46,673 bases of DNA from a virus, in the IMG/VR virus record IMGVR_UViG_3300025312_000007, positions 1 through 46,673 of that record; one strand, given 5' to 3'. Below the pieces are notes generated by a model. The model saw nothing but the letters and a program-made list of their open reading frames with translations. It made no database searches and was not told the DNA's origin. Both the position numbers and the translations under genes were made by a program. Below, piece by piece: positions 16,876 through 38,131 of this stretch; within the stretch, counting starts at the first letter, position 1, and each line of letters begins with the position of its first letter.

Positions 16876-16876
16876 T

Positions 16877-19507: not shown

Positions 19508-19508
19508 T

Positions 19509-19841: not shown

Positions 19842-19848
19842 ACTTTTA

Positions 19849-19878
19849 ATATTAAACTAAATCTTTATTTAAAGACAA
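19849..19878 (-). promoter_or_regulatory. Structural-class leaderless promoter (110-aa protein)
   Basis: Minus strand: TTGTCT (19878-19873), 18-bp spacer starting TTAAATAAA, TAATAT (19854-19849), 7 nt, ATG at 19841. Confidence 0.7.
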
Positions 19879-22800
19879 CTAAAGTGTGCTTGTATATTTG
19901 TCCGTATAAGTATTTCCTGTAGTTGAATACTTATTGGTATAACTTGCCGGTGAAGGTGAGGCCGAGACTGAGGCAGATGCTGAAGGAGATTCAGATGCTG
20001 ATGGGCTTAAGGAAGCACTGACCGATGCCGATTCACTTGCGCTGGGAGATAACGAGGCGCTTCCACTTGCCACCGATTCGCTAGCACTTCCGCTTGGACT
20101 TAGAGAGGCCGATTGGCTAACGCTTCCTGAGGGAGAGAGGGAGGCGCTTTCTGATTTAGATGCACTCTTGCTTGCAGACTTGGATGCAGATTTTGATTCC
20201 GAGGCGCTAGGACTTAAAGATTTAGATTCAGACTTTGATGCTGATGCCGATCCCGAGGCTGATGGGCTTTGACTAGCGGAGGGTGAAAGACTTTTACTCT
20301 CCGATGCCGAAGGGGATTGACTGGCGCTGGCCGACTTAGATGCTGATGCAGAAGCACTTGCAGACTGAGACAGGGATCCGGATGGACTTAAGGATGCACT
20401 TGGAGACAATGATTTACTAGCAGAGGCAGAGGGGGATAGAGAAGCCGAGGGCGACAAGGAGGCACTTGGCGATAAAGAGGCAGACCCAAAGTTCTCAAAC
20501 GGATAATAAGCTACAAAATTTGCCTCACCCCCAGTTAATTCAAGGCTTTTGTTGTCACTTATTTCAGTTGAGGTTCTTATATCATTCCAAACTCTTACAT
20601 CATCTAACATTCCATCAAAAAACTGTTCCTTCACTCCGCTTTGTTCTGTTGCACCCAAAATAAACGCTGCGGTTCCATTAAAGATTGAGGTTACACTTCC
20701 ATCTTGTAAGGCTGTGCCATTTCCTTGACTTACGCCACCTACAAATAACTCAAATTCTGTGGCAACGGCATTTGATACATCACAAGTAACAGCCAAGTGA
20801 AACCACGTTCCTGGCGTTAATATGTAATTAAAAGCTACAGTATCCCTATTAGTTGTTCCTCCATCTGAAGTAATGGTGGCTGAAAGTCTTTTTGTTCCCC
20901 CTGAATCCTGATATGCAATGGCATAAGACCTTTGTGCTGTTCCATAATCTGATTTGTTTACAATGAAATAAGTAGTATCTGCCCCAGGGGCGCTTTCTAC
21001 TTTTATCCAAAATTCAATGGTGAAATCTCCAGCCAAATCTAGACCAGTTTGTGCTGCATCCGCAATTGATAGAGATTGAGATGATCCAGCTTCAAAGTCT
21101 GCCGCAATAGCAGAATCTACAAATGGTGTATCACTTATTCCTGTAACAGTATTGTTGTTAGTTAGGTCATTATTGTTGGCCGTTTTATCATCTATCTCTA
21201 ATGTCATAGGAGAAGGAGAGGCGGAAGGAGAAAGCGATTTACTTGCACTACCACTAGGTGATTGAGAAGCTGATTGTGACAATGAGGCGGAAGGACTAAG
21301 AGAGGCTGAGGGACTCAAAGATTTAGACTCAGACGCAGAAGGTGAAAGGGATTTAGATGCCGAGGCGCTAGGAGACAAGGACGCTGATGGACTTAGACTT
21401 CCTGAAGGACTCAAACTGGCTGAGGGTGATTGACTTTTACTTTCACTGGCTGAAGGAGACAATGATTTACTTTCACTAGCCGAGGGGCTTAGTGAACCAG
21501 AGGGTGACAAACTAGCGCTAGGTGAGAGAGAAGCGCTAGGCGAAAGACTAGCACTAGGGCTTACTGAAGGGCTTACACTTGAACTTCCTCCCCCTGCTGC
21601 TGTATAGGTAGCGTAGATGGACATATTTATCGCAGTTGATGCGTCTGCAGTTGTCCACGGATCTTCCTTTGCGGCTGCGTAAGAACCAGCGCCAGAGAAA
21701 AGTTCGGAATACCCATTAAGGCTTCCAGCACTGTCATAGACGTAGTTCAAATCTCTCCCTGCTGTTATGTCGGCCCAATCCCAAGTTGCACTTATTACAA
21801 TAGGCACAGCAGTAATGGCAATGGATAGGGATGAAAAATTGAAAAATGCGGCTGTTGTTGTTGTGGACTGGTCAACATCCCCAGAAGCACCAATGAGAGC
21901 GTGACTATCACCAGCAGTATCTTCCGTGTTCAGAAAGGCCATTGCAGTGATGGTGTCATTTCCAGCAGAGTTGTCTGCCGCAACAGATATTTCAGTAACT
22001 GTTCCAGCACCTGCGGGAGTATATCCTCTCCCATTCCTCCAATTTCTTTGAAATCCGCCCGAAGTTCTTATCCACCACCCACTGGTTGATGCACCTAGAC
22101 TTGTGTATCCAAACGTCGGATCAACTATTACTGGATATACCGCATTATCTAACCATGCTTGGTCTATAGTCACACTCAATAATCCATTTTGCTCATCAAT
22201 ATTTAGTTCTCCCCAAGTCTCATTTCCATTAGCGTCTGTTATTTTTGGTCTGAAGATGTGGAAGGCTTTACCGACCTTGTATTCCATTCCATCGCTTCTA
22301 TTCATTCCACCCTTTGTAGCGTGATATACAGCATAGCTTCCTTCTACGTTTTCAGGTCTTGAAGCACCTTCATCTATTTCTTCTTGAGTAAGTGGAGGCT
22401 GAAAGAAGAAGTTAAGTCCTTTGGTTTGAATAGTTGCGGTTAATACATTTGTACTTGGTTTTTGTTTCAGCACCCATTCGAACTCAAATCCCCCATCTTC
22501 ACCAGCATCAGGCTTATCATATTGGTGTACTTCATATTCGGGAGTAATATATTTAATCTTCTCGCCTTCAGTTTCAACTGTAGCTCCTACTTTTTCTTCG
22601 GCTCGTAAAGAAAAGTTAACTTCATTATCCCAGCGCATTATCTTGAATTGGGGTTTGAAGTCGGGCTGAAGTGCATCCCCGATTTCTACTCCTATTCTAT
22701 CTTTGGGGTTATCTTTTACCTCATGAGAGAAAGTTTCGTTCTCAACAACATATTTATCTGTTAAAACCTTGGGAAGTTTAATCTGGTCTATAGTCGCCAT
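19879..22800 (-). CDS. Multidomain Ser-rich repeat virion protein with LamG-like domain
   Basis: 973 aa. Residues 1-225 are a beta-rich N-terminal region ending in [13 protein letters not shown]. Residues about 230-405 form a beta-sandwich similar to the N-terminus of the 543-aa protein at 35149. A first Ser-Pro-Ala-Ser stretch spans about 410-530. A LamG/concanavalin-like domain follows ([33 protein letters not shown]). A second repeat stretch spans about 770-950, with a C-terminal YTNKY...YTDKY motif. Likely a carbohydrate-binding fibre. Leaderless start. Confidence 0.75.
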
Positions 22801-22806
22801 TCCCTA

Positions 22807-22836
22807 AGAATAGGAGTTATTTTTAGTTTAAGGCAA
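22807..22836 (-). promoter_or_regulatory. Structural-class leaderless promoter (973-aa protein)
   Basis: Minus strand: TTGCCT (22836-22831), 18-bp spacer starting TAAACTAAAA, TATTCT (22812-22807), 6 nt, ATG at 22800. The -35 overlaps the last codons of the glycosyltransferase upstream. Confidence 0.75.
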
Positions 22837-24454
22837 TTAAATCTTTGGAGTCCCAGCCTGAAACCTGATAATTTTCACTCTCTTGCCAGTTAATAAGAAG
22901 CTGTTGGTTCCTATATTGTTCTTTTTTCCATCTTTGGCCTGTGGCATTAGCCCCGTGCTTAATATCCACGTTGGGAAACTCGGACATCCAAGTTTCATAC
23001 TTAAACTGGTTCTTCCACTTAATTCTTCCATGAGTGAATGGTTCAAATCCACAATGCCTTACCCAGCCATTAAACTCTCCTTCAGATAACTCTTTAAACT
23101 TTTGCTCTGCCAACTCGAATCTTTCTCTGAAATGAGTAATCGCCGCATCTCGATAAACACAAAGTCCTGATAACTGGTTGACGTCATAGTGTAGTGCATG
23201 GCCATCTGTTGCCCTTAGAAGCCACACATTCTGGTTATAATAGAATACATCTTCTTTGGGTGGTTTGAAGTCAAAATGGGATGGGTGATACAAAACGTCA
23301 TGCTCGGTGAAAAAGATTATATTGTCACTGCTTTTTTCCAATGCACCTAGTATTTGTTTAAACATTGTTAAATACCCACGCTTCATACTTGGGAAGCGTA
23401 CATTCTTGTCCCCAAAATCCATCTTTTTAAGAGAAGAGCAGGTTATACTTATTTTCTTTTCTTTACTTATTTTTGAAAGTTGGTCTCTTACGGGCCTGGC
23501 AATCTTTTCGTCTAATTGATTGTCTGTATAAAATATAGCCCCACTAGTAATTGTCCAATCGGGAGGATTGAATTTATCTAATAGCCATTGGAATTTACGT
23601 GTTGCAAGCGGCCACTTGTCTTTTTGGAACATCTGCCTTGACTTCTCTCTGTTCTCGTTTACTTTGTCTTGCGGGTTAGGATATGGGAATCCGAAATCTC
23701 CTCCTCTTGTACGAAACATGTGTGCATACCATGTTCTAAGATTTGCTATAACTCTACCGCCTGACAACCAAGTCTTACAAGCAACCTCAACTCCCTGCTG
23801 ACCCCAAGAGTTAAATTCTTCACTGCAAAGATCTAGTTCAAAATACTTTGCTTTGGTACACATAAAGCACGAGCCTTGTATGCTTAAAGTCTCTCTGAAA
23901 TCACCTTGTGCAAGGCTTTCGGGTTTTTTAGCTTGACCTCCGTCATATTGGAAGTGCATCGTCTTATCAAATCTAAAAGTGAAGGTTTGCGGACTTCTCT
24001 TCGGAATCCATACTACATCCTTAATAGTAGGCTCTTTACACTCTTCACACATCCCTGAAGGGCTTTGGTAGCGTCTGTGACCATTTTTACACACCCAGTC
24101 AAAGGCGTGCAGATTACGCATCACCGGAATCATTGTTACATTATCATCAAGTTCCTTATATGCCTGGAGCATCTTCACATCAAAGCCTTTATCAAAAGCA
24201 CAATGGGCGTCAACCTTCATTACATACTTACCTTTAGCTAACTTGGCAGCTTGATTGGCGGCGACTCTTTGCCCCACAGATACAGGGTTATATATAACTT
24301 TTACCTTTTCACTTACAGGAAGCGGAGGATCAGGTAAGTAACCATCCAAAATAGCGATTATTTCCGTTTCTCCTTCTATGTTTTCAAGAAGGTCTTGAAT
24401 AGTACGACCTAAAAATTCTTCCGACCTCGCAGGAATAATTACTGTGAGATCCAT
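22823..24454 (-). CDS. Bifunctional glycosyltransferase (two GT-A-like domains)
   Basis: 543 aa. Residues 1-300 are a GT2-type domain (LTVIIPARSE start; KVDAHCAFDKGFD with a DxH in place of DxD; LRTWYAHMF), interrupted by a zinc-knuckle insert (CKNGHRRY...CEECKEP). Residues about 310-540 form a second GT-A-like unit with FFTEHDVLYHPSHF. Expected to add sugars in sequence to a glycan. It is the last gene of the cassette and the largest transferase. Its start overlaps the dehydrogenase-like gene by 16 nt. Acceptor and donor are unknown. Confidence 0.8.
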   Translation of the reverse strand: MDLTVIIPARSEEFLGRTIQDLLENIEGETEIIAILDGYLPDPPLPVSEKVKVIYNPVSVGQRVAANQAAKLAKGKYVMKVDAHCAFDKGFDVKMLQAYKELDDNVTMIPVMRNLHAFDWVCKNGHRRYQSPSGMCEECKEPTIKDVVWIPKRSPQTFTFRFDKTMHFQYDGGQAKKPESLAQGDFRETLSIQGSCFMCTKAKYFELDLCSEEFNSWGQQGVEVACKTWLSGGRVIANLRTWYAHMFRTRGGDFGFPYPNPQDKVNENREKSRQMFQKDKWPLATRKFQWLLDKFNPPDWTITSGAIFYTDNQLDEKIARPVRDQLSKISKEKKISITCSSLKKMDFGDKNVRFPSMKRGYLTMFKQILGALEKSSDNIIFFTEHDVLYHPSHFDFKPPKEDVFYYNQNVWLLRATDGHALHYDVNQLSGLCVYRDAAITHFRERFELAEQKFKELSEGEFNGWVRHCGFEPFTHGRIKWKNQFKYETWMSEFPNVDIKHGANATGQRWKKEQYRNQQLLINWQESENYQVSGWDSKDLIALN

Positions 24455-25203
24455 GACTTGTTCCTTTCTAAAATAGCCCTAGTTATATCAGTGTTTGAAT
24501 TGAAAGACTCAGCCCATGCACACCAAGCGTATATGTCTTTAGGAATACACTTTGAATTAAACCCTCTTTTTTCAAATATAAATGTCCACCAAAGGTTAAA
24601 CCTTGGATCATCTCCATAAACTGCATCACGGATTGTATAATAGTCTACTCCTGATGCCTGACAAGCGTCGTAAAGCTCCTGACACTGTGCTACTTTAAAG
24701 GCTATTGCCCTATTCTCAGTTAGTTTGATAAGTTCCGCTTCGTAAGCCGTAACTTGTCTGATTGTGACGTTGGCGTTATAGACCGTAGTATACAAATCAA
24801 TCAAATGCCTTCTCGCTCCTGGCTCTCCTCCAATAATCAGGAAGGGTCTGGTCTTGGGATCTAGCATGGGATGGGCCGGAGTTTCTCCTATATACTCAGG
24901 TTGCATCACAATTCGTTTATTGTAAATTCTTGATAATCGGTCACAAGTGCCAGGATTGACGGTTGAACGGACAACTATTAAAGGACAAGTACACCAGGCC
25001 ACACATTCCTCTACAATCGAGGTATCCAGTTCTCCATCATCATTTTTCAGATTAGGAGTAGGTACACAAATAAAGGCAATATCACATTTATTTACATTGT
25101 TTTTGGTTGTTCCGTATATATTAGGGTCATATATAACAGCATCAGGAAATAGCTTGTGCATTGCTTTTCCAACCCACCCAAGACCGACAATTCCTACTTT
25201 CAT
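24439..25203 (-). CDS. UDP-glucose/GDP-mannose dehydrogenase-like protein, catalytic Cys kept
   Basis: 254 aa. The N-terminal Rossmann motif is VGIVGLGWVGKAM; a middle helical domain has ELIKLTENRAIAFKVAQC. RGFNSKCIPKDIYAW aligns with the GGxCxPKD active site, and Cys is present. The C-terminal nucleotide-sugar-binding domain of the full enzyme (usual length about 430 aa) is missing. It may oxidise a sugar nucleotide to a uronate, but the truncation makes substrate and activity uncertain. Coupled to its neighbours by overlapping starts. Confidence 0.7.
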   Translation of the reverse strand: MKVGIVGLGWVGKAMHKLFPDAVIYDPNIYGTTKNNVNKCDIAFICVPTPNLKNDDGELDTSIVEECVAWCTCPLIVVRSTVNPGTCDRLSRIYNKRIVMQPEYIGETPAHPMLDPKTRPFLIIGGEPGARRHLIDLYTTVYNANVTIRQVTAYEAELIKLTENRAIAFKVAQCQELYDACQASGVDYYTIRDAVYGDDPRFNLWWTFIFEKRGFNSKCIPKDIYAWCAWAESFNSNTDITRAILERNKSWISQ

Positions 25204-25487
25204 TTTAGTTCTATTAAATCTAATTGTTTTTTTGCCCTAGTTTCTAGATCATCACCAATATAAAAGTGTTTATTTATTTTCTTGTGATATTTATGATAAA
25301 TATTTTCCCCGTGTTCTGGTTTGGCTAATAATATTTCATCGGCCCATTCGCAAAGCATATTCAAGGTTTCTTTAGATACAAGTAATCCACCAACAGACAA
25401 TACATCTTTATATCCTCTATCATTAAGTGCGCGTTTTGTCCATACACTTCGATTATTTCCCAGCCTACAGACACAAAGTATCTTCAT
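25200..25487 (-). CDS. Low-molecular-weight phosphatase-like protein
   Basis: 95 aa. The N-terminus ILCVCRLGNNRSVW contains C-x5-R-S (C6, R12), the phosphate loop of low-molecular-weight protein tyrosine phosphatases. It is shorter than the family (about 140-150 aa), and the distal catalytic Asp is not obvious. It lies next to the heptose kinase, and no GmhB-type phosphatase is present, so it might remove the 7-phosphate of heptose 1,7-bisphosphate (inference). ATGA overlap with the kinase stop. Confidence 0.55.
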   Translation of the reverse strand: MKILCVCRLGNNRSVWTKRALNDRGYKDVLSVGGLLVSKETLNMLCEWADEILLAKPEHGENIYHKYHKKINKHFYIGDDLETRAKKQLDLIELK

Positions 25488-26449
25488 ATATTGAATATTA
25501 TTCTGCTTCCCAGATTACTGAATCTAAATGGTAACTCTTTATAATCTTTAAGTGCTTCTTTAATTTTGGCTCTCTTGTTAGCTGAAAACATAACCAAAAG
25601 AAATCCTCCACCACCTGCACCAATTATCTTTCCTCCTATTGCTCCAGCCTTTTTGGCCATATCATACATCGAATCAATTTCTGGATTGCTAACTTTGTTA
25701 ATTAAACTTTTCTTGATCTGCCAATACTTGTCAAATAACTGTGCAAAACCTTTTAAGTTACCTTTCAACAAGGCAACTATACCATTGTTAGCAAAGACCT
25801 TATTTTGATGAAGAAGCGGTAAATTTTCACCAACATTAAAGGATCCCAAGATATCATCAGCCTTTCTGGTAACCCCCGTATATAAAAGCATCAAACTGTT
25901 ATTGAAGTCCTCTTTTACCGATTCATCCATTTCTATTTTCCTTCCATAGACTTCGCCTGACGGACTAAACTCAATTGCCCTTAAACCACCCATTACCGCA
26001 ATATGCTGATCCTGTACCCCAATCGGTTTACCTAAAATATCTAATTCGATCTTTACAGCTTCCTCGGCCAGTTGTTGAGAACTTACACTTTCTCCTAGGT
26101 AAGCATGAAGGGCATTTAACACTCCAACTACAACACTACTTGAGGAACCAAGACCTGACCCCCGTGTTGGGATATCAGATAAAAATGATATTTCTATACC
26201 CTTTCTTATTCCAAGCAGTTTCAGGGACTCACGAACTAGATCATGTTTAAGATCATCTACTTTTTCTACAATCTCTTTATCTGAGTAATTCACAATTATT
26301 AGATCATCAAACCTCTTAACGACCGTGCAGTAAATATATTTGTCGATTGTCGTGGCCAAAACTAACCCACCATAATTCAGGAAATATTCTCTGAAGTCGG
26401 TATTTCCTCCAAGTAAACTTAGTCTTAAGGGTGTCTGACTAACTATCAT
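25484..26449 (-). CDS. hddA: GHMP kinase, HddA-like (heptose 7-phosphate kinase)
   Basis: 321 aa, full length for the family. Motifs: SQTPLRLSLLGGNTDF (motif 1), PTRGSGLGSSSSVVVGVLNA (ATP-binding motif 2) and GGKIIGAGGGGFLLV (motif 3). This combination is typical of D-glycero-alpha-D-manno-heptose 7-phosphate kinase, which makes the 1,7-bisphosphate on the way to GDP-heptose. The neighbouring GmhA-like isomerase, transaldolase and nucleotidyltransferase support heptose over other GHMP substrates. Overlaps the next gene upstream by 11 nt. Confidence 0.8.
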   Translation of the reverse strand: MIVSQTPLRLSLLGGNTDFREYFLNYGGLVLATTIDKYIYCTVVKRFDDLIIVNYSDKEIVEKVDDLKHDLVRESLKLLGIRKGIEISFLSDIPTRGSGLGSSSSVVVGVLNALHAYLGESVSSQQLAEEAVKIELDILGKPIGVQDQHIAVMGGLRAIEFSPSGEVYGRKIEMDESVKEDFNNSLMLLYTGVTRKADDILGSFNVGENLPLLHQNKVFANNGIVALLKGNLKGFAQLFDKYWQIKKSLINKVSNPEIDSMYDMAKKAGAIGGKIIGAGGGGFLLVMFSANKRAKIKEALKDYKELPFRFSNLGSRIIFNI

Positions 26450-27299
26450 CTAACTCCTTATACATCTCTCCTACCTTTTCTATGTGGTAATATTCGGATC
26501 TTTCAACACACTCTCTTGCGTAATTAACATATAAGCTTGTGGTTGTTCTTAGCCTGTCCAGTGCAGTCAAAAACTCACCAAAGTCATTAACTGGCATATA
26601 GCAACTCTTAACCTCTCCAAACGCCTTCTCGTCAAGTGCAATTGTCGGAATACCAAAAGAAGCGGCATTAACTATCTTTAACGGATTCGATAATATCTTC
26701 TTGTATGGCCTCCACACCAATTGAATATCAATACTCAAATAGAAATCTATAATATCCTGTCTGGTGTAAAACTTTGAAAACTCTATCAATTTCATATCTA
26801 TTTTTGCTAATTCTCTCTTTAATTCTTTAGGAAGATACGGGAAGGCTCCTCTAGTCCCTATTACTCCAATCGTAGTTACTTCTCTTCCTTCCCGCCTAAT
26901 TCGTTCAAAATTACAGTGATGTTGGGGAATATAGACAATCCTATTAGAAACTTCCCCAGACATGACTTCCATATCGGCTTGAGAACAGACTATCATTGTT
27001 ACTTCAGGATGTCTTTTAGCTACCATTGCTAAATTATGACCGTCTATTATGTCCAAGTAGGGTTTTCCTTCAAACTTGAAATCATCACCCTTTCTAACCA
27101 TAGGCTTGACATAAATGCAAACATCATTTTCGTACCCACTTTCAGGATTAAGTTTCGCCCCTATCTGATCCGCTATCTGATCTCCTCTTATCGTTGAAGA
27201 AACACGCATCAGCTGCCCCCTGGGAGGACTAACCCTATCTTTAAAAGACTGGCTCGGGTTTATATTAAGAAATGATGGTTTGGCAAAAATTGAAATCAT
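26439..27299 (-). CDS. GT-B-type glycosyltransferase (GT4-like)
   Basis: 286 aa. The second half carries a nucleotide-sugar-binding-like Rossmann unit (TTIGVIGTRGAFPYL) and the family's late motif region (RPYKKILSNPLKIVNAASFG, then IPTIALDEKAFGE), where conserved Pro/Asn-Ala-Gly residues hold the donor. The N-terminal half is shorter than in most GT4 enzymes (usually 350-400 aa in all). Different fold from the GT2 enzymes of the cassette, so it probably adds a different linkage. Confidence 0.65.
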   Translation of the reverse strand: MISIFAKPSFLNINPSQSFKDRVSPPRGQLMRVSSTIRGDQIADQIGAKLNPESGYENDVCIYVKPMVRKGDDFKFEGKPYLDIIDGHNLAMVAKRHPEVTMIVCSQADMEVMSGEVSNRIVYIPQHHCNFERIRREGREVTTIGVIGTRGAFPYLPKELKRELAKIDMKLIEFSKFYTRQDIIDFYLSIDIQLVWRPYKKILSNPLKIVNAASFGIPTIALDEKAFGEVKSCYMPVNDFGEFLTALDRLRTTTSLYVNYARECVERSEYYHIEKVGEMYKELDDS

Positions 27300-27790
27300 A
27301 AGACATACTCCTTAACTACTTCCGAAACTTTCATTCTTCTTCCCGGAATATTAATCTCACAATTAAATCCTTCGGGGATTAGGTTAATCCAATGTAAAAA
27401 CTCGTCTTTGTCCACAATGTATCTTTCTGCATCATGAATTTCTAATGGTTCATCGTTGGCAACTCGGTTTTTCATAAAGTTAATTAATGTGTTTGGATTA
27501 TCTCCCCATGTGATATTCCCAAGTCTGACAATGCAATACTTTGGAAAGTTCTCCATTACCAATTCCTCCATTTTCCTTTTATGTTGTGCATAGCGGTTGT
27601 CGTTGTAAAAAATCGACAAAGAACCAAAATATACCAAGCGACTATTTCTATCTTGTTGTAAAAGTAAGTCTTTTTCTCTTTGATACTCAGTTTCACGAAC
27701 CTCAGAACTATTACTGACCCCACTAGCGAAAAAGGTTGTTCCAGGTCTATCTGTCAACACACTAGCTATGTCTCCATTACCTTCAATCAT
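27296..27790 (-). CDS. Compact SDR-type sugar epimerase/dehydratase-like protein
   Basis: 164 aa. A short Rossmann start (MIEGNGDIASVL), FFASGVSNSSE, YFGSLSIFYND and a YAQHK (YxxxK) pair resemble extended SDR enzymes acting on nucleotide sugars. At about half the usual length (300-350 aa), much of the substrate domain is lacking. It could be a minimal epimerase or reductase in the heptose branch. Coupled by ATGA to the transaldolase. Confidence 0.65.
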   Translation of the reverse strand: MIEGNGDIASVLTDRPGTTFFASGVSNSSEVRETEYQREKDLLLQQDRNSRLVYFGSLSIFYNDNRYAQHKRKMEELVMENFPKYCIVRLGNITWGDNPNTLINFMKNRVANDEPLEIHDAERYIVDKDEFLHWINLIPEGFNCEINIPGRRMKVSEVVKEYVL

Positions 27791-28512
27791 ATTAGTTTCA
27801 TTTTCTCTCTTACATCACGATATGCTTTATTAAACTGGTCTGCTGTCTCTACGCCCCTTTGTGTAAACATCCATTCTTCTAATAGCTTTGGGGGAATGGT
27901 AACAATATCAGCCCCATTAACAAAGGCTTCCTCGATTTGATCTGTGTTTCTGATACTACCAATAATCACTTTTGTGGCCAAACTATGAGTTTGTAAGTAT
28001 TTTAGAGTAGTAGCTAGTGTCCTGACGGCAGCACCCTCTCCTTTTGCCTCGTCACACCTACCCCAAAATAAACTGATATAGTTATCTCCTTGAGCGGTAC
28101 TACCACGCATCGCTTCAGAAGCACCTATCAGTTGTCCTGCACTAATTCCAAGTGTTGCATTAAGCCTCACACCCTCTTGGCTTAATTTATACATTACTTC
28201 AAATGCTTTTTGTGAATCCCTCGGATCCATTGGAACCTTAATTACAGCATTACCAGGGAATCTATCACGATATCTGAGTGCTAAATCAACCATTTCCCCT
28301 TTTGACATATCGGAATCGGGAATCTCAATAGATATAGGAAAGTTCGGCCCCGATATCTCAATCATTTTCTCTATATGTTCGGGAACGTCTAAAATTCCCT
28401 CCTTCTGTAAAATCACAGGATTAGTGGTTGCTCCACCCAAAATTCCCGTATCAAACCACTTTTTAAATCCTTCAAGGTTGGCTGAATCGTAAAATATACC
28501 TGATTCTTTCAT
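27787..28512 (-). CDS. Transaldolase-like enzyme
   Basis: 241 aa, the length of the small TalC/MipB-type transaldolases. Motifs: FYDSANLEGF, GGATTNPVIL, AVIKVPM (Schiff-base Lys), NATLGISAGQLI, YISLFWGRCDEA and GADIVTIPP. Transaldolase interconverts sedoheptulose 7-phosphate and other sugar phosphates. Cyanophages carry talC for central carbon metabolism, but here it lies directly before the GmhA-like isomerase, so the probable purpose is supplying sedoheptulose 7-phosphate for heptose (inference). Confidence 0.85.
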   Translation of the reverse strand: MKESGIFYDSANLEGFKKWFDTGILGGATTNPVILQKEGILDVPEHIEKMIEISGPNFPISIEIPDSDMSKGEMVDLALRYRDRFPGNAVIKVPMDPRDSQKAFEVMYKLSQEGVRLNATLGISAGQLIGASEAMRGSTAQGDNYISLFWGRCDEAKGEGAAVRTLATTLKYLQTHSLATKVIIGSIRNTDQIEEAFVNGADIVTIPPKLLEEWMFTQRGVETADQFNKAYRDVREKMKLI

Positions 28513-29081
28513 TTAATCCTTCCTTTAAGGTCAAATATTAATCCATGATTTATTACAACGTGCATCGCTTCAACAAGTGGTGTGCCATATACCTCATTAT
28601 TAGTTGGAACCACAATACAAGCATCGGCCATTTTCTTTAACATTCCACCATCGAATCCCGAAAAGCCGATAATCTTAGCTCCTCGTTTCTTAGCAAGGTT
28701 GAGGGCCTTTGTAAGGTTGCCTGACCACTTACGATTACCCCCATGTACTGAAAAACCAACTAATACGTCTTTCTTTGTAAGCCATGCGTCCAACTGTCCT
28801 TCGAAGATACTGTCCCATCCGAGGTCGTTAGTGTAAGCACTGACAAGTGGGATATTGTCCACTAGAGAAATTGCCTTAAATCCCCCGGTCGTCTTAGCCA
28901 AATCAGCTGCAAAGTGAGTAGCAGTAGAAGCCGAACCGCCGCACCCCATCGTAAACACAGTTCCCTTTCGTTTATACAAATCTACTAAAATGTCTCTTGC
29001 CTTCACATATTCAGGAGACCATTTCCTTGCAAAGGACATATCAGATATAGATTCAAAATATTTAAGATATTCAAATGTCAT
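28509..29081 (-). CDS. gmhA: SIS-domain isomerase, GmhA-like
   Basis: 190 aa, the GmhA length. The SIS phosphate-binding loop is GCGGSASTATHFAADL, followed by SAYTNDLGWDSIF, a Ser/Gly loop (VGFSVHGGNRKWSGNL) and VEAMHVVINHGL at the helix that carries catalytic residues in sedoheptulose 7-phosphate isomerases. Expected to make D-glycero-D-manno-heptose 7-phosphate. Both starts and stops overlap its neighbours by 4 nt. Confidence 0.8.
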   Translation of the reverse strand: MTFEYLKYFESISDMSFARKWSPEYVKARDILVDLYKRKGTVFTMGCGGSASTATHFAADLAKTTGGFKAISLVDNIPLVSAYTNDLGWDSIFEGQLDAWLTKKDVLVGFSVHGGNRKWSGNLTKALNLAKKRGAKIIGFSGFDGGMLKKMADACIVVPTNNEVYGTPLVEAMHVVINHGLIFDLKGRIK

Positions 29082-29740
29082 GTTACTGGCCCCTTAACCC
29101 AAAACCACGATCTGTATTTATCTCTGGTTACCCCGTCTTTATATTCTTCGGCACCGACTATAAACAAAGGTATCATTCTGTAACATCTGGCGTAGGGAAC
29201 CAAGGCTCTTTTGACATGATTAAACTTCTTGTAAGAAAAGTATGCGTAATCGTGTCCCGACATAATTCCGCCCATCCTTACCTTTTTAAGCCAATAATGT
29301 AGATCGTTGGTGAAGTTCACAAAGTCATGGTTTGCGTCAATATAAACAAAGTCTAAAGACTCATCTTCAAAGTCTTTTAGGGCATCCATTGAGCTTTTCC
29401 TTACTATTGTGCAATTTTTATAACTACTTAACATTCTTATCGTTTCCTGATATTTACCTTCAAAGTACTCTTGGGGAGCATTTAAGGCAGTGATTTGTTC
29501 CAATGGTTCGTAATCCGATAACATCCAAGAATCAATGCTATAGAGTTTTAAATTAGGGTTAGCTTTACATAATACCTTTGAGTATTCTCCCCTCCACACA
29601 CCGATCTCCGCACCCTTGTTAAGGTTAAGTTCTGCGAATAACTTAGCCAGATCGTCTCTTCCCATATTGGGTATCTCCACAATATACTGACTACCCACAT
29701 TAAGGTTGTACTTTTTAACTATGTAGTCATAATTATTCAC
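29078..29740 (-). CDS. Class I SAM methyltransferase (Methyltransf_24-like)
   Basis: 220 aa from a GTG at 29740 that overlaps the upstream TGA as GTGA; a TTG at 29746 with GGAGG upstream is possible. GAEIGVWRGEYSKVL is the SAM-binding loop, LDFVYIDANHDFVNFTNDL the acidic motif and GGIMSGHDY the metal-site-like motif. Members often methylate sugars or small acceptors. Probably decorates the glycan. Confidence 0.7.
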   Translation of the reverse strand: MNNYDYIVKKYNLNVGSQYIVEIPNMGRDDLAKLFAELNLNKGAEIGVWRGEYSKVLCKANPNLKLYSIDSWMLSDYEPLEQITALNAPQEYFEGKYQETIRMLSSYKNCTIVRKSSMDALKDFEDESLDFVYIDANHDFVNFTNDLHYWLKKVRMGGIMSGHDYAYFSYKKFNHVKRALVPYARCYRMIPLFIVGAEEYKDGVTRDKYRSWFWVKGPVT

Positions 29741-30246
29741 TTCCAAAAGTCCTCCAAATCTACAAAGTTACTTAAAACAGTTGCTTGATTCTTGTCTTTT
29801 TCCCAGTTGGTTCGGTATTTAAATAACGGATAAATTTCCGAGTAATGATAGGTCTTTTCGTTATTCCCGCCGGAATCGTGAATTATTATATATTTCGCAA
29901 GGTTGGCAAGCCTTTTAACTTCTTCTCTGCGGCTACTATCTGGGGTCTGGTCTATCAACACAACATCCCAGGGCTTGTCTATCTTGGCATCTGAGTATTT
30001 CTCAACAAAGTGTAGTTCATGATATTCGTTTTCGTAGTGGTAATCAATGAAAAACTGCAACCAATTCTTAAAGTTCTCGTAGCTTACCAGTTTGCGTTTA
30101 GAGAGCATACAAGCATAATGTAGATAGGGTGTGCTAAATACTCCCATTCCCAGCTCCAGCACGTCTCCTGCGGTCTTAGACATCGCTTGTATAAGACAAG
30201 CTAAGTGCGTACCGTAATTTCCTGATACTTTCATTGAGTAAGCCAT
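29737..30246 (-). CDS. Class I methyltransferase-like protein
   Basis: 169 aa from the ATG at 30246 (AGAGAGG 7 nt ahead); the longer frame to 30279 and an ATG at 30234 are alternatives. DVLELGMGVFSTPYL matches a SAM loop, and WDVVLIDQTPDSSRREEV with YIIIHDSGG matches motifs of sugar-modifying Rossmann methyltransferases. It is short for the family. A second transferase of this kind in the cassette suggests a multiply methylated glycan. Confidence 0.6.
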   Translation of the reverse strand: MAYSMKVSGNYGTHLACLIQAMSKTAGDVLELGMGVFSTPYLHYACMLSKRKLVSYENFKNWLQFFIDYHYENEYHELHFVEKYSDAKIDKPWDVVLIDQTPDSSRREEVKRLANLAKYIIIHDSGGNNEKTYHYSEIYPLFKYRTNWEKDKNQATVLSNFVDLEDFWK

Positions 30247-31103
30247 GTTTTGTACCTCTCTTTCCAGTCCTCCGGCCAAGTAGGCATAGGGTAAAACTTG
30301 TCAATAAACCATTCAATCTTTGGGTCTTTCATCCAGTGATTGGCCCAAACATCATAACTAACTCTCTCCTGATCTTTGGTATAACGATAACCCTTAACCG
30401 AACCATCTTGGTGCATATGTGCATACCAAGTTTTTTTATTAACCATTACCTTACCTCCCAAAAACCAAGTCTTTAGTCCGAGATTAGGCGGCTCTTGGGC
30501 GTGTCCCATAGGGTCAATCAAGGGGAAGCCCCCTATCTTGTTAAGAAAGAAGTCTCGGTTTACAAACCATCCAGAGCCGTGAAATTGTGGAGTTTCGTCT
30601 ATTAGAATATCCAGTTTTTCTGCTGTTTTCTGAGGCCAATGCCCTCCAGCTTTAAATCTAAAGCCCCTTTTGTCCGTAAATGGACATGATAGGTAGAAAT
30701 AATCGTAAAATCTTTCATCCTGCCATTCCCAAGTCTTACCGTCTAGCACATAGAAACGTGGAGTGACAATCCAATTATCCTGCATATCCGCCTGTAAGAC
30801 TTCGTCGAATCCCTTACCGAAAGAACAGTGTGCATCGGACTTATAGATATACTTGCCTGTGGCCATAATAGCTAATATGTTCACCATTGCCTTTATCCCC
30901 ACATTCTCAGGTAGCCTTAATACTCTGAAGTTGGGATAATCAGGGAAGTCTTGGTATTCAGGGCCATTAAAACCAACTATTACTTCAAACTCACCCGTAG
31001 CCTTCTCATATACATCCTGTACAGTCCTTTGAAGAACATTAACTCCCTCATTGGTCGTAGCAATCTCATTGCAACTCGGTACAATAATACTTACTTTAGG
31101 CAT
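30231..31103 (-). CDS. GT2-type glycosyltransferase
   Basis: 290 aa. VSIIVPSCNE is the GT-A nucleotide-binding start, KSDAHCSFGKGFDEVL carries a DxH in the place of the DxD metal motif, and KKTWYAHMHQDG lies near the C-terminus. The KxDxHxxF and TWYAH blocks are shared with the transferases at 33819 and 22823, so the three are paralogues. No membrane helices. Donor and acceptor unknown. Confidence 0.8.
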   Translation of the reverse strand: MPKVSIIVPSCNEIATTNEGVNVLQRTVQDVYEKATGEFEVIVGFNGPEYQDFPDYPNFRVLRLPENVGIKAMVNILAIMATGKYIYKSDAHCSFGKGFDEVLQADMQDNWIVTPRFYVLDGKTWEWQDERFYDYFYLSCPFTDKRGFRFKAGGHWPQKTAEKLDILIDETPQFHGSGWFVNRDFFLNKIGGFPLIDPMGHAQEPPNLGLKTWFLGGKVMVNKKTWYAHMHQDGSVKGYRYTKDQERVSYDVWANHWMKDPKIEWFIDKFYPMPTWPEDWKERYKTWLTQ

Positions 31104-31650
31104 TGTTTACTCTTTCTAAGTCTTTGGGTGTATTGATTTCTCCTATAAAATCCTCGGCCTCTATAAGTGTTACTTTATGACTGGCGACAAACTCTTCTAC
31201 TAATGATCTGAATTGTTCATTAACTGGTTCATAATCAAATATGTCCGTATTCAAAACCATCACGCCATCGTATATTCCGTTATTAAATGTTAGAATACTT
31301 AAATCTTCTCTTAGGCATCTTTCAATATTGACTGGGTTTGGTATTTCATCTCCGTATATTAAAAGAAATCTTTCATCTTTTAAGTAATCTCTTGTAGCAA
31401 GAAAGCTATACACATTCCCCTCATCCGATCCGGTGACATACTTTACTTCTTTTCTTTTACCTATATGTTTTACAATTTTATCTCCCAGATACTTAATAAC
31501 AATAATTATTTCGTCTATTTCTTCTGGAAGAGAGGCTAATATGTAATCAATAATCGGCAATCCATTGACCTTCAACAATGGCTTAGGAGTCTTTGCCGTC
31601 AGTGGCATCATCCTTTCCCCCCTACCCGCCGCAAGTATCACAGCTTTCAT
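31096..31650 (-). CDS. Sugar-phosphate nucleotidyltransferase, HddC-like
   Basis: 184 aa. MKAVILAAGRGERMMPLTAK followed by TPKPLLKVNGLPIIDY is the signature of sugar-1-phosphate nucleotidyltransferases. In the context of HddA- and GmhA-like enzymes the likely product is GDP-D-glycero-alpha-D-manno-heptose (HddC reaction), though a different base or sugar cannot be excluded. Shorter than RmlA-type enzymes (about 230-290 aa), close to small HddC-like forms. Confidence 0.75.
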   Translation of the reverse strand: MKAVILAAGRGERMMPLTAKTPKPLLKVNGLPIIDYILASLPEEIDEIIIVIKYLGDKIVKHIGKRKEVKYVTGSDEGNVYSFLATRDYLKDERFLLIYGDEIPNPVNIERCLREDLSILTFNNGIYDGVMVLNTDIFDYEPVNEQFRSLVEEFVASHKVTLIEAEDFIGEINTPKDLERVNNA

Positions 31651-32564
31651 ATCTTGTCCTTTTTATATACTTCTTCCACAATCCTCAGTGTTTCGTAAGC
31701 ATCTTCGGCGTTTGATCTCGATTCCGACATAAAATCTTCTAATTCAAGTTCCAATGAGTGATCTGCTATTGAATCACAAGGAATAACAAACTCTCTCACT
31801 TTGTCAGGGTCGTCTGTACGACTTCCAACTATCAACTTTTCAGGTTCTCCATATCTCATCCCCAACCCTTCAACGACCAGATAACCCTTAGTGCCGTATA
31901 TCTCAAAAGTGTGCATCCGTTTCCACTGAGTCAAACTACTGTGAATTGAGGCAATTACATTTCCGCTTTTAAGAAGTACAAAAGCATTGTCTTCAGTCCC
32001 TGATCCCCAATAAGTATCGGCCCTGAATCCTTCTACTTTGTCAATCTTTCCCATGAACGACCTGGCCATATCAATCATGTGTACCCCTTGATCGTGCAAG
32101 TGTCCTCCCCCACCCATTTCCTTGTTTATTCTCCATTCTTTTTCATAGCCAGGTCTTCCTCCGAAACCATGTCTTGCCCTTATAAAGAGTAACTTACCTA
32201 TATCTCCTGCTTTGTAAAACTCTCTGGCCTTGATAAACCCGTCGTGGAATCGGTAGTTATAACCTATCTTGTAAATCAAACCCATTTTCTTTGCTAACTT
32301 AATATTCTTCTTAATCTCTTTTGATGTAATAGCGCTGGGCTTTTCACAAAGAACGTGCTTACCAGCTTTGAGGGCTTGTTCGGTAATAGAAGCATGGAAC
32401 TTGTGGGGAGTAGCGATTATAACAGCATCTATATTCGATGCCTCCAATACATCTTGTAGTGCAATAGTACCAGTCTTGGGTTCAACAATAGCAAGTAAGG
32501 AGTCGCCCAACACTCCAGCCCATCTGGTTCCCATCTTCCCTGCACCTATCAAAGCAAAATTCAT
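31647..32564 (-). CDS. Gfo/Idh/MocA-family oxidoreductase
   Basis: 305 aa, near full length (usual 330-380). FALIGAGKMGTRWAGVLG is the NAD(P)-binding loop, HVLCEKPSA the conserved E-K-P, and HDQGVHMIDMARSF contains the conserved His of the active site. Likely oxidises or reduces a hydroxyl of a sugar nucleotide. With the two dehydrogenase-like proteins it suggests that heptose, or a second sugar, is modified after activation. Confidence 0.8.
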   Translation of the reverse strand: MNFALIGAGKMGTRWAGVLGDSLLAIVEPKTGTIALQDVLEASNIDAVIIATPHKFHASITEQALKAGKHVLCEKPSAITSKEIKKNIKLAKKMGLIYKIGYNYRFHDGFIKAREFYKAGDIGKLLFIRARHGFGGRPGYEKEWRINKEMGGGGHLHDQGVHMIDMARSFMGKIDKVEGFRADTYWGSGTEDNAFVLLKSGNVIASIHSSLTQWKRMHTFEIYGTKGYLVVEGLGMRYGEPEKLIVGSRTDDPDKVREFVIPCDSIADHSLELELEDFMSESRSNAEDAYETLRIVEEVYKKDKI

Positions 32565-33310
32565 AAGTTTATTAGTTTACTGACAATTTTATCTCTGCGT
32601 TTGTGATTCTTTTCCATAACAGCATTTAGTATCGGAGTTTCCACACCCTTGTTCTTGGCTACTTCTTGTAAGTAATTTATATCTCTATCGAAATGGCCAC
32701 CTCGAAATCCCACTGACACATCTAAATATGCTTCTTTACCTATTCTCCAATCAGACCTTAACGCTTTTGTAACATCAACTACGTCAGCGCCAACCTGTTC
32801 ACATATATCGGCAATGTCATTGATTAACGATACGGTAGTTGCTAAGTAAGCATTTGTTGCGTGTTTAATCATCTCAGCAGTTTCTATACTCGTAAAGAAA
32901 ACCGTCTTGTCGTGGAACATATTAACTAGAGTGGGCTTAGGTTTGTCGCTATCAACTCCAATCGTAATTTGTGTAAGATTTATAAAATCAAAGATTCCCC
33001 TTCCGATTCTCATATGTTCGGGAATATAAGCATAGTTATCTCCTAGTATCTTCATCAGTTCTCTTGAAGTCCCTACTGGTACTTGGCTTGAACAAATTAC
33101 CAATACACCCTGTCTGAGTTTATCCCTTACTCTTTTGGCTACAATAAACACATCTTCGATATCTCCCCGGCCATCTTTACTAATAGGAGTATCAATTGCT
33201 ACCCAACACACTTCACACTCCTCCAATTTAACTATCTCGTGGCCTATCCTTTCCATGCAATATGAAAAAGCCTGGGCCATGTGTTCTGTTCCTACAATTG
33301 CTATTTTCAT
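32561..33310 (-). CDS. UDP-glucose dehydrogenase-like protein lacking the catalytic Cys
   Basis: 249 aa. N-terminal Rossmann (IAIVGTEHMAQAF), WVAIDTPI and a middle domain (MIKHATNAYLATTVSLINDI) match the UDP-glucose/GDP-mannose dehydrogenase family. The active-site block reads GFRGGHFDRD where the family has GFGGSCFPKD, so Cys is replaced by His and the Pro-Lys by Asp-Arg. The C-terminal domain is also absent. It may be a non-oxidising partner or have altered chemistry. ATGA coupling upstream. Confidence 0.7.
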   Translation of the reverse strand: MKIAIVGTEHMAQAFSYCMERIGHEIVKLEECEVCWVAIDTPISKDGRGDIEDVFIVAKRVRDKLRQGVLVICSSQVPVGTSRELMKILGDNYAYIPEHMRIGRGIFDFINLTQITIGVDSDKPKPTLVNMFHDKTVFFTSIETAEMIKHATNAYLATTVSLINDIADICEQVGADVVDVTKALRSDWRIGKEAYLDVSVGFRGGHFDRDINYLQEVAKNKGVETPILNAVMEKNHKRRDKIVSKLINL

Positions 33311-33831
33311 TTATGTTTTACAACAATTAGCCTATCGTCATAGCGTTCTCCACATTCGATTGTATTAGTGGAATAAATCTTGCTTATTGGTTCCAGAATA
33401 CTGATATCGGCCACGTCCTCAATAACATAGATGCAATCTTTCTTTAAACGAGGCATTACGGACATACAGGTATAAACTTGGTCCTTCGGTTTGTGTGATC
33501 CGTCATCTATAACTAAATCCATATCTAAACCGACATTGCCGAATAAATATATGAGGTCATGTCCTTTAGATTGATCGCAGAGAAAAACCTTAATTCTATT
33601 CTCTTTAAACAACCTTCCTACCTGATTATCAGCCCCGTAGATCATTGCATTTGGAAAAAAATCTCTAAACATTCTAAGTCCAGCACCTTCGCCTACACCT
33701 ATTTCAAGAACCTTTTTAACCCTACGTCTTTTGGAGTTATTTCTAAACATCTCGTAATAATGAGGCGTGTAGTGGTGTTTACCCCACTTGTCGGTTTTAT
33801 ACTTAATAGCCAACTCAGTTAACTTATCCAT
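33307..33831 (-). CDS. Class I SAM methyltransferase (sugar O-methyltransferase-like)
   Basis: 174 aa from the ATG at 33831, chosen because AAAGGAG lies 5 nt ahead; the frame extends to 33858. LEIGVGEGAGLRMFRDFFPN is the SAM loop, DLVIDDGSHKPKDQV the acidic metal-binding-like motif and YVIEDVAD the end of the core, as in CmcI/macrocin-type sugar O-methyltransferases. Overlaps the upstream transferase by 13 nt. Confidence 0.75.
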   Translation of the reverse strand: MDKLTELAIKYKTDKWGKHHYTPHYYEMFRNNSKRRRVKKVLEIGVGEGAGLRMFRDFFPNAMIYGADNQVGRLFKENRIKVFLCDQSKGHDLIYLFGNVGLDMDLVIDDGSHKPKDQVYTCMSVMPRLKKDCIYVIEDVADISILEPISKIYSTNTIECGERYDDRLIVVKHK

Positions 33832-34691
33832 CCCATCTCCTTTATTTGTTTTTCCCAATCGCTAGGCCATGAAGGCATACCGGGGAATTTGGTATTTATA
33901 AACCACTCGAATTTATGAACCATATCAGGCTCTCTATTGTTCAACCAGTGATCTGCACTCCAACTAGAAGCTTCTACAGTACCACCAGGGAATCTATACA
34001 TCCTTCCGTATCTTCTACCTTTATGTAAGTGTGCATACCAAGTTTTCTTATTTACTTTTATGGCCCCTCCTCCCAACCAAGTCTTGAAACCTATCTCCTG
34101 ACTCTCCTGGGCAAACTGTCCATAACCTTCTTCTTTTAGCCCCCCCAGTACGTTTAGGAAGTAGTTTCGGGTCATAAAGTAGCATGAACCCTGCATTGAT
34201 GGCGTATCGTCTATTTCCTCAGTTCTATCACGCTTCCAGGGTACGCCATGCATCCCGTCATCGTGATCTTTACCTTTACGTGGAAAGTCAATATACATAT
34301 AGTTAATTGGGTACTTATTGTCTGTTCTTTCTTCAATCTTCCATTCTTCAACATTTAAAGCATAGCGCCTTGGTATCTGTATCCAATTATCTTCTAAGTG
34401 GTTTTCAATGAGTATTTTGCCAAAATTCTCACCAAATGCTACGTGGTCATCACACTTTAGAATGTATTTTCCTTTGGCCATAGCAACGCAGTTATTGATT
34501 CCTTGTCTTAAACCTATTGGGGAGGCGGGATGAATATAGTGGACTCTCCCATCTTCACTTAGGGGTTCTGGCCACTTCTCATCTACGTTTACAATCACTT
34601 CTATGTCTACTCCAGCATTTTTTAAAACATCTTCTATAGTTTTAGCTGTGAAGGGTGAATTGCGATTGGGAATAATTATACTTAAATCCAT
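33819..34691 (-). CDS. GT2-type glycosyltransferase
   Basis: 290 aa. LSIIIPNRNSP begins the GT-A fold, KCDDHVAFGENF provides the metal-site region (DxH form), and NKKTWYAHLHKGR lies near the C-terminus. Paralogue of the proteins at 30231 and 22823. The ATG follows the Tad2-like stop directly. First transferase of the cassette and thus a candidate for the enzyme that adds the first sugar to the acceptor (inference). Confidence 0.8.
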   Translation of the reverse strand: MDLSIIIPNRNSPFTAKTIEDVLKNAGVDIEVIVNVDEKWPEPLSEDGRVHYIHPASPIGLRQGINNCVAMAKGKYILKCDDHVAFGENFGKILIENHLEDNWIQIPRRYALNVEEWKIEERTDNKYPINYMYIDFPRKGKDHDDGMHGVPWKRDRTEEIDDTPSMQGSCYFMTRNYFLNVLGGLKEEGYGQFAQESQEIGFKTWLGGGAIKVNKKTWYAHLHKGRRYGRMYRFPGGTVEASSWSADHWLNNREPDMVHKFEWFINTKFPGMPSWPSDWEKQIKEMGWIS

Positions 34692-36780: not shown

Positions 36781-36851
36781 ATCAGACTACCCCCTTTTGA
36801 AGTTTAACTAAGAGTTTAGAAGTGTCTTTTAGGTTCCATATAAATATCACA

Positions 36852-37184
36852 TTATTTTTCTATAATAATAGCCGTTGCGCCCGATTCTCTTTCAATAATG
36901 TTAAAAGCAGTCTGCTTGGTTCCATCCGCTTGTAAAGCAATCGCCAAGTCTACAATTTGATTGGCTGGAATAATCTCGTCAAAAAGTGAAGCATTGGCAT
37001 CTTCTATTCCCCATCTTAAATAAACATCTTTAGAAATTGCATATATTCGCAAAAAAGTAGTATTTGTATTTAAGGTAATCTCAATTGACGAAGACAAAGT
37101 GGCTTGGACATAACGAGCCAGAGAAGTCCCCATAGGAGTTATCTGTATTGGTCTTCCAAATGTATCTGTTGGTAGTTCAGTCAT
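36852..37184 (-). CDS. Small head-associated protein (decoration-like)
   Basis: 110 aa, mostly beta (SSIEITLNTNTTFLRIYAIS; DVYLRWGIEDANASLFDEII). Such small beta proteins often sit just downstream of capsid genes in environmental phages and may decorate the capsid. The ATG follows the upstream stop by 2 nt, with no ribosome site, so it is translationally coupled. Assignment is positional. Confidence 0.6.
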   Translation of the reverse strand: MTELPTDTFGRPIQITPMGTSLARYVQATLSSSIEITLNTNTTFLRIYAISKDVYLRWGIEDANASLFDEIIPANQIVDLAIALQADGTKQTAFNIIERESGATAIIIEK

Positions 37185-37186
37185 AG

Positions 37187-38056: not shown

Positions 38057-38068
38057 GTTTCTCCTATT

Positions 38069-38131
38069 AAAAAAGCCTACTTCTTAAAACCTAGCGCTTT
38101 TTTTATAGCTGTAGGCTTCAAGCTGTAGGCT
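38069..38131 (-). terminator. Terminator after the major capsid gene
   Basis: In the transcription direction, AGCCTAC occurs twice (38131-38125 and 38117-38111) and can pair with GTAGGCT (38080-38074), followed by a T6 run. The 30-nt loop is large and the duplicated arm offers two pairings, so efficiency may be partial or regulated. Confidence 0.55.

What the first reader, a model, noticed from the sequence alone, without database searches (positions are those of the whole stretch)
25484..31650. Phage-borne heptose pathway includes its own transaldolase
Transaldolase (27787) directly follows the GmhA-like isomerase (28509), with the HddA-like kinase (25484) and HddC-like nucleotidyltransferase (31096) close by. 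This would carry carbon from central sugar phosphates through sedoheptulose 7-phosphate to GDP-heptose. In cyanophages talC is read as a pentose-phosphate gene; here the context gives it a glycan role.
Basis: partly seen in the sequence, partly recalled or inferred. Interest (0 to 1): 0.7.

Follow-up and report, generated by a model that had tools for sequence, protein, structure and literature searches.

The report
Phage transaldolase–isomerase pair, octose-type sugar cassette
A virus of bacteria carries a small gene set for building an unusual long-chain sugar, starting with its own transaldolase; the core gene pair is related to the one that makes the eight-carbon sugar of the antibiotic lincomycin, so the product is probably an octose rather than the seven-carbon heptose first suggested.

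Summary
All TAL catalytic residues are kept and selection is purifying. A glycan role is well supported. The GDP-heptose reading is only partly supported. The nucleotidyltransferase is not HddC-specific and no GmhB is present. The SIS belongs to a distinct clade with a remodelled phosphate loop (SVxGG plus an insertion instead of SxSG). In 74 loci that loop and a nearby TAL coincide perfectly: 16/16 against 0/58. The clade contains LmbN and CcbN, and the linked TALs include LmbR, the lincosamide enzymes that make octulose 8-phosphate and octose 8-phosphate. Cyanophage TalC falls outside it, among ordinary pentose-phosphate TalCs. Bacterial operons (Rhizobium, Lawsonia, Candidate Phyla Radiation bacteria, Streptomyces) carry fuller sets. 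Canonical heptose clusters carry no TAL. Best reading: a viral, slimmed LmbR/LmbN-type cassette making a higher-carbon sugar, most likely C8, to decorate the flanking Ser-rich virion proteins. The kinase, shared with TAL-free sister phages, is the main evidence that the product could still be a heptose.

The parts
27787..28512 (-). Transaldolase (TAL, 241 aa), LmbR-type; catalytic D9, T29, N31, E63, K92 (Schiff base), N118, T120, S147, F149, R152, S186, R188; local motif SLFWGR
28509..29081 (-). SIS-domain ketose-phosphate isomerase of the LmbN clade (190 aa); H56, D60, E171, H179 kept; phosphate loop SVHGGN plus insertion instead of SxSGNS
25484..26449 (-). GHMP sugar-phosphate 1-kinase (321 aa), HddA/WcbL-like; shared with TAL-free sister phages
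31096..31650 (-). Short sugar-1-phosphate nucleotidyltransferase (184 aa), GlmU/MurU-like, not HddC-specific; conserved in three related contigs
31647..32564 (-). Gfo/Idh/MocA oxidoreductase, LmbZ-like (39% to the Rhizobium cassette protein, 37% to LmbZ)
32561..33310 (-). Nucleotide-sugar dehydrogenase lacking the C-terminal UDP-binding domain, LmbL-like (31% to Rhizobium, 29% to LmbL)
25200..25487 (-). 95-aa low-molecular-weight tyrosine-phosphatase-like protein (CX5RS: C7...R13 S14); candidate replacement for the missing LmbK/GmhB phosphatase (role inferred)
24439..25203 (-). Second nucleotide-sugar dehydrogenase-like protein, also lacking the C-terminal domain; present in TAL+ and TAL- phages
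27296..27790 (-). Mini-SDR (164 aa, YxxxK kept); in TAL+ and TAL- phages, so not specific to the TAL module
33819..34691 (-). Glycosyltransferase-like protein (GT2-type, assigned by reading the sequence), first gene of the operon
30231..31103 (-). Second GT2-type glycosyltransferase-like protein (assigned by reading the sequence)
22823..24454 (-). Large glycosyltransferase-like protein (assigned by reading the sequence), last gene before the Ser-rich protein
19879..22800 (-). Ser-rich repeat ([11 protein letters not shown]) protein directly after the operon; candidate glycan acceptor
35149..36780 (-). Ser-rich repeat protein upstream of the operon; candidate glycan acceptor

Best explanation
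The operon is a viral, slimmed-down version of a bacterial higher-carbon-sugar cassette whose only characterised relatives are the lincosamide GDP-octose genes. TAL transfers a three-carbon unit from fructose 6-P (or sedoheptulose 7-P) to a phosphorylated aldose, most likely ribose 5-P, giving octulose 8-P. The SIS enzyme isomerises it to octose 8-P. The GHMP kinase phosphorylates C1. A phosphatase (perhaps the 95-aa LMW-PTP-like protein, otherwise a host enzyme) removes the terminal phosphate. The short nucleotidyltransferase makes an NDP-octose. The dehydrogenase and Gfo/Idh/MocA oxidoreductase then oxidise and reduce the sugar, probably at C6. Glycosyltransferases attach the product, most likely to the Ser-rich virion proteins encoded on both sides. 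Shown here: gene content, conserved catalytic residues, purifying selection, and that TAL and SIS belong to the LmbR/LmbN-containing clades and are co-inherited. Inferred: acceptor, chain length, nucleotide, the phosphatase role and the virion target.
For: (1) TAL within 8 kb and the SVxGG loop coincide 16/16 against 0/58 across 74 SIS loci from phages, CPR bacteria, Alphaproteobacteria, Desulfovibrionales and Actinomycetes; with a kinase nearby 13/13 against 0/38. Columns V112, non-Ser113, G115 and the insertion at 119 separate the classes completely (18 against 53). (2) With LmbN and CcbN added, the TAL-linked SISs form one side of a 99/99 branch. Linked TALs including LmbR form one side of a 100/99 branch, against PPP TalC plus cyanophage TalC. 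(3) Window SIS to LmbN 42%, 134 bits; TAL to LmbR 30%, 97 bits; the best GmhA of known structure reaches 77 bits with another scoring program. (4) LmbR makes octulose 8-P from F6P or S7P plus R5P (PMC5854111) and LmbN is octulose 8-P isomerase (PMC4351081). (5) The L146 locus was accepted as lmb because of its gene set and the N-terminal extension of its SIS. (6) LmbL- and LmbZ-like genes accompany TAL in the window and three of the four other TAL+ contigs, and occur in none of the 10 TAL- sister contigs. (7) Seven CPR genomes with SxSG SIS plus kinase have no transaldolase, so that pathway does not need one; Streptomyces with the linked TAL have housekeeping TALs besides. (8) S147/F149/R152 match TalB S176/F178/R181, the transaldolase-type site with a phosphorylated acceptor (PMC3962226). 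(9) Ser-rich proteins flank the operon in related contigs.
Against: The phage kinase nests among kinases of TAL-free phages and is not in the clade of cellular TAL-linked kinases, which suggests an unchanged, perhaps heptose, substrate or a tolerant kinase. Only the Lmb branch of the TAL/SIS clade is characterised, and its relation to the phage branch is not resolved with support. There is no HAD phosphatase and no aminotransferase (LmbS). Similarity of the nucleotidyltransferase to LmbO is weak (27%, 32 bits). Three of the four CPR genomes with the linked TAL have no other TAL, so it may also serve central metabolism there. Contig L018 has TAL and SIS without the LmbL/LmbZ-like genes.
Confidence: 0.5

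Rival explanations
1. One reading: TAL makes sedoheptulose 7-P from F6P and erythrose 4-P, SIS acts as GmhA, the kinase as HddA, a host or the LMW-PTP-like enzyme as GmhB, and the nucleotidyltransferase as HddC, giving GDP-heptose for a glycan.
For: Kinase best match is HddA (169 bits), and it is about 73% identical to kinases of TAL-free sister phages that carry a GmhA-type (SxSG) SIS. The gmhA model is the best named model for SIS.
Against: SIS is in the LmbN clade with a remodelled phosphate loop. HddC match is only 33 bits. Canonical heptose clusters lack TAL in all 58 non-SVxGG loci, and the Campylobacter heptose paper (PMC10680097) starts from S7P with no mention of transaldolase. Some CPR genomes run SIS and kinase with no TAL.
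Confidence: 0.3
2. The TAL/SIS pair makes another ketose/aldose phosphate (different acceptor or donor, for example another pentose 5-P epimer or a C6-C9 product); the clade is defined by a dedicated TAL feeding its SIS, with varied chain lengths.
For: Linked TALs vary at the position after the catalytic Phe or Leu (W, A or G). Several subclades have no characterised member.
Against: The one characterised branch makes a C8 sugar from common metabolites; there is no direct evidence for another acceptor.
Confidence: 0.15
3. TAL is an ordinary phage auxiliary gene that pushes the pentose-phosphate pathway, as proposed for cyanophage TalC, and its place next to SIS is incidental.
For: Same Pfam family; similarity to cyanophage TalC is about 33%; three of four CPR genomes with the linked TAL have no other TAL.
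Against: TAL is tied to SVxGG SIS across phyla. Cyanophage TalC lies in the other clade and, in S-SM2, beside psbA/psbD and nrdC. Here TAL sits inside a sugar operon.
Confidence: 0.05

Closest known systems
LmbR/LmbN (CcbR/CcbN) octose 8-phosphate module of lincosamide biosynthesis
   Same: TAL and SIS in the same clades, the same SVxGG loop, the same catalytic core; kinase, nucleotidyltransferase, LmbL-type dehydrogenase and LmbZ-type oxidoreductase also present
   Different: Phage-borne; no HAD phosphatase (LmbK), no aminotransferase (LmbS), no full-length LmbM-type epimerase; truncated dehydrogenase; kinase from a different branch; glycosyltransferases and Ser-rich virion genes around it
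Bacterial TAL-SIS polysaccharide cassette (Rhizobium jaguaris, Lawsonia plasmid 3, CPR genomes)
   Same: Dehydrogenase, Gfo, kinase, nucleotidyltransferase, SIS and TAL
   Different: Bacterial version has a GmhB-like HAD and an SDR, and a distant TAL subclade (24% identity to Rhizobium); product unknown
[quoted passage not shown]
   Same: Isomerase, GHMP kinase, nucleotidyltransferase logic
   Different: No transaldolase in that pathway; SIS loop type differs; no GmhB; nucleotidyltransferase not HddC-like
Cyanophage TalC
   Same: Phage-encoded small transaldolase with the same catalytic residues
   Different: Different clade (SPF[V/L] motif, photosynthesis/PPP context)
Caulobacter phage Cr30 phosphoheptose isomerase and D,D-heptose 7-P kinase genes
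   Same: Phage-borne SIS plus kinase
   Different: SxSG-type SIS, no TAL: the canonical kind

Membership tests
Transaldolase / FSA superfamily (PF00923), transaldolase branch | Schiff-base Lys and active-site D/T/N/E/N/T set | tested here: met
   K92 and D9, T29, N31, E63, N118, T120, S147, R152, S186, R188
Transaldolase / FSA superfamily (PF00923), transaldolase branch | Phe (transaldolase) rather than Tyr (aldolase) at the TalB F178 position | tested here: met
   F149; role of F178Y from PMC3962226
LmbR/LmbN-type TAL-SIS pair | TAL encoded near an SVxGG-loop SIS | tested here: met
   Adjacent, 4-bp overlap; SVHGG
LmbR/LmbN-type TAL-SIS pair | SIS and TAL group with LmbN/CcbN and LmbR to the exclusion of GmhA-type SIS and PPP TalC | tested here: met
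LmbR/LmbN-type TAL-SIS pair | Product is octulose 8-P, then octose 8-P | not testable with these tools
   needs enzyme assay
Lincosamide GDP-octose pathway (LmbRNPKO-MLZS) | Complete gene set including LmbK phosphatase and LmbS aminotransferase | tested here: not met
   No HAD phosphatase or DegT aminotransferase seen in the operon; so it works like part of this pathway but is not a member of it
GDP-heptose pathway (GmhA/HddA/GmhB/HddC) | GmhA-type SIS (SxSG phosphate loop) | tested here: not met
   SVHGGN plus insertion
GDP-heptose pathway (GmhA/HddA/GmhB/HddC) | HddC-type guanylyltransferase and GmhB HAD phosphatase | tested here: not met
   HddC 33 bits against GlmU/MurU-type 78-86 bits; no HAD found
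Cyanophage TalC | Groups with cyanophage/PPP TalC | tested here: not met
   Separated by 100/99 branches
Low-molecular-weight tyrosine phosphatase (25200-25487) | CX5R(S/T) P-loop in the LMW-PTP fold | tested here: met
   C7...R13 S14 invariant in six relatives; AF2 pLDDT 90.8; nearly all top Foldseek hits are LMW-PTPs, best E 5e-4

The most novel reading that the evidence does not exclude
Phages encode a GDP- or NDP-octose route: an LmbR/LmbN-type pair that builds an eight-carbon sugar de novo during infection and puts it on Ser-rich virion proteins. The SVxGG SIS/TAL pair would then mark an overlooked octose pathway across bacteria and their viruses, previously characterised only in lincosamide antibiotics.
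Probability: 0.45. Interest if true: 0.8.

Novelty: new variant of a known kind. Interest (0 to 1): 0.62.

Why it matters
If right, the dedicated transaldolase/SVxGG-isomerase pair is a sequence signature that separates higher-carbon (probably octose) sugar clusters from heptose clusters, which annotation now lumps together as GmhA/HddA. It would extend octose biosynthesis from antibiotic producers to phages and to many bacteria, and would give phage transaldolases a second role besides host energy metabolism. It also offers a testable route to unusual glycans on virion proteins.

Tried and rejected
Rejected: TAL as cyanophage TalC. Rejected: HddC label. Considered: TAL needed because the host lacks S7P; weakened by CPR genomes with SIS and kinase but no TAL, and by Streptomyces that have the linked TAL plus housekeeping TALs. 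Considered: D60/E171 (in place of Glu/Gln in GmhA) as the class mark; rejected because many TAL-free SISs share them. Streptomyces sp. NP160 hit (L037) proved irrelevant. phmmer of the 95-aa protein against PDB found nothing; only the fold search placed it. Host assignment stayed open: the nearest cellular SIS/TAL is in a WWE3 (CPR) genome, and the TerL search of CPR genomes gave one 62%-identical fragment. The original LmbR/LmbN and LmbK/LmbO papers were not held; no paper found by the searches describes a phage octose pathway.
Full report
Observation. The four genes are real and at the stated places, all on the minus strand. TAL overlaps the end of SIS by 4 bp, as do most genes of the operon running from 34691 down to 22823. 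Family scans give TAL_FSA (104 bits), SIS domains, GHMP kinase with HddA as best named model, and a nucleotidyltransferase that is nearer GlmU/MurU than HddC. The window is the whole 46.7-kb IMG/VR record. The pair is under purifying selection between related phages: dN/dS 0.03-0.18 where it could be computed, dS saturated.

Phage comparison. Searches of IMG/VR with TAL, SIS and kinase gave 14 distinct contigs that hold this operon far enough to be scored, besides the window and its near-identical copy L002. TAL and a long SIS occur together in four of them (L003, L004, L008/L010, L018). The other ten carry the same kinase but a short SIS and an SDR, and no TAL, no Gfo, no first dehydrogenase and no nucleotidyltransferase. 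A further contig, L019, is cut off before the SIS position. In L008 and L010 (one contig) an HNH-type gene separates SIS from TAL, yet both stay. A second phage contig of another kind (L027) has its own TAL/SIS pair.

Bacterial relatives. The single scan of GTDB genomes with the phage TAL alignment found one real relative, a WWE3 (Candidate Phyla Radiation, CPR) contig where SIS (65% identical), TAL (48%) and a HAD phosphatase lie together. Plasmids of Rhizobium jaguaris and Lawsonia intracellularis carry a fuller set: nucleotide-sugar dehydrogenase, SDR, Gfo/Idh/MocA, GHMP kinase, nucleotidyltransferase, SIS, HAD and TAL. Phage SIS, kinase, Gfo and dehydrogenase are 43, 39, 39 and 31% identical to the Rhizobium proteins, TAL only 24%.

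A class mark. I collected 74 SIS loci from phages, plasmids, a CPR sample (380 genomes) and an Actinomycetes sample (395 genomes). SISs whose phosphate loop reads SVxGG have a TAL within 8 kb in 16 of 16 cases; all others, mostly SxSG, in 0 of 58 (Fisher 1.5e-16; with kinase 13/13 against 0/38, 2e-12). A few of the 58 are poorly framed GC-rich ORFs. The loci are related by descent, so the p-value overstates independence: the tree shows one clade that has kept its TAL across phyla. Alignment columns V112, residue 113 (never Ser), G115 and an insertion at 119 separate 18 TAL-linked from 53 other SISs without exception, while H56, D/E60, E/Q171 and H179 stay.

Link to lincosamides. The set TAL, SIS, kinase, HAD, nucleotidyltransferase, dehydrogenase, epimerase and Gfo oxidoreductase is the lincosamide amino-octose set R, N, P, K, O, L, M, Z (table in PMC4351081; PMC12945683). 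A genus search then found a 10.3-Mb genome (L146) and an 8.9-Mb genome (L147). L146 fits lmb: TldD, methyltransferase, DegT, AMP-binding genes and a SIS with an N-terminal extension, as described for LmbN. L147 fits ccb: its Gfo protein has a C-terminal carrier domain, as described for CcbZ. The identification rests on gene content. Adding them, TAL-linked SISs including LmbN and CcbN form one side of a 99/99 branch, and linked TALs including LmbR one side of a 100/99 branch, with cyanophage and PPP TalCs on the other. One row in the SIS group, L143, was placed there by similarity without checking its TAL. The window SIS matches LmbN at 42% and TAL matches LmbR at 30%. The TAL local motif SLFWGR resembles LmbR SLLWGR; ordinary TalC reads SPF[V/L]GR.

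What TAL does. S147, F149 and R152 correspond to TalB S176, F178 and R181; F178 marks transaldolase rather than aldolase, and R181 binds the acceptor phosphate (PMC3962226). So TAL should be a transaldolase with a phosphorylated acceptor. LmbR uses F6P or S7P as donor and R5P as acceptor to give octulose 8-P (PMC5854111), and LmbN isomerises it (PMC4351081).

Why not simply heptose. Clusters of the GmhA/HddA kind do without TAL, also in seven CPR genomes that have no transaldolase at all (genomes may be incomplete). Streptomyces with the linked TAL have two or more other TAL-family genes. A dedicated TAL next to an isomerase with a rebuilt phosphate loop is best explained by a ketose phosphate that the cell does not otherwise supply. 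The strongest counter-evidence is the kinase: the phage kinase nests among kinases of TAL-free phages, apart from the kinases of cellular TAL clusters. Either it tolerates a longer chain or the sugar is still a heptose.

The missing phosphatase. No HAD was found in the window's operon. The 95-aa gene after the kinase has a CX5RS loop conserved in six relatives, a confident AF2 model (pLDDT 90.8), and Foldseek matches to LMW tyrosine phosphatases (Wzb, YwlE; best E 5e-4). In sister phages the slot before the second dehydrogenase holds either a relative of this protein or a small HAD-like protein, which hints at interchangeable phosphatases. This role is inferred, and a Wzb-like regulatory role is possible.

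Destination. Proteins with stretches up to 50% Ser ([11 protein letters not shown]) lie on both sides of the operon in the window and next to it in the related contigs that reach that far. With several glycosyltransferase-like genes in the operon, O-glycosylation of virion proteins is the likeliest use, but this is inference.

Verdict. The finer reading changes: the pair belongs to the LmbR/LmbN class, and the product is more likely an octose than a heptose (about 0.5 against 0.3).

Noticed in passing
15248-22803 and 35149-38083: Five Ser-rich repeat proteins ([11 protein letters not shown], up to about 50% Ser) flank the sugar operon; similar proteins flank it in related contigs.
   Followed up: partly
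L011-L017, L020-L022: Sister phages carry an alternative cassette: same kinase, short (about 140 aa) SxSG-type SIS, SDR epimerase, and a small HAD-like or LMW-PTP-like protein in the same slot.
   Followed up: partly
L008:10548-11216 and L010: An HNH-type endonuclease gene inserted between SIS and TAL; other HNH-like inserts in L004, L015, L019 and L020.
   Followed up: no
27296-27790: A 164-aa miniature SDR that keeps a YxxxK motif but lacks most of the usual N-terminal domain; conserved across the phage group.
   Followed up: no
24439-25203 and 32561-33310: Two nucleotide-sugar dehydrogenase-like proteins that both lack the C-terminal UDP-binding domain.
   Followed up: no
L032, L128, L132: A different GmhA-like SIS gene sits between hydrogenase maturation genes (hypC/hypF and hypD) in Bradyrhizobium, Mesorhizobium and Methylocystis plasmids.
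   Followed up: no
L093, L124: Gene clusters with the lincosamide octose gene order but flanked by a seryl-tRNA-synthetase-like gene, a glycosyltransferase and an ABC transporter: possibly an undescribed octose natural product.
   Followed up: partly
L149 (G185): A CPR genome contig encodes a fragment 62% identical to the window's terminase; together with the WWE3 SIS/TAL relative this hints at a CPR host, not shown.
   Followed up: partly
L035:5863-9965 (Synechococcus phage Bellamy): Another phage sugar cluster: HddA-like kinase, nucleotidyl transferase, two epimerases and an AraD-like aldolase instead of a transaldolase.
   Followed up: no
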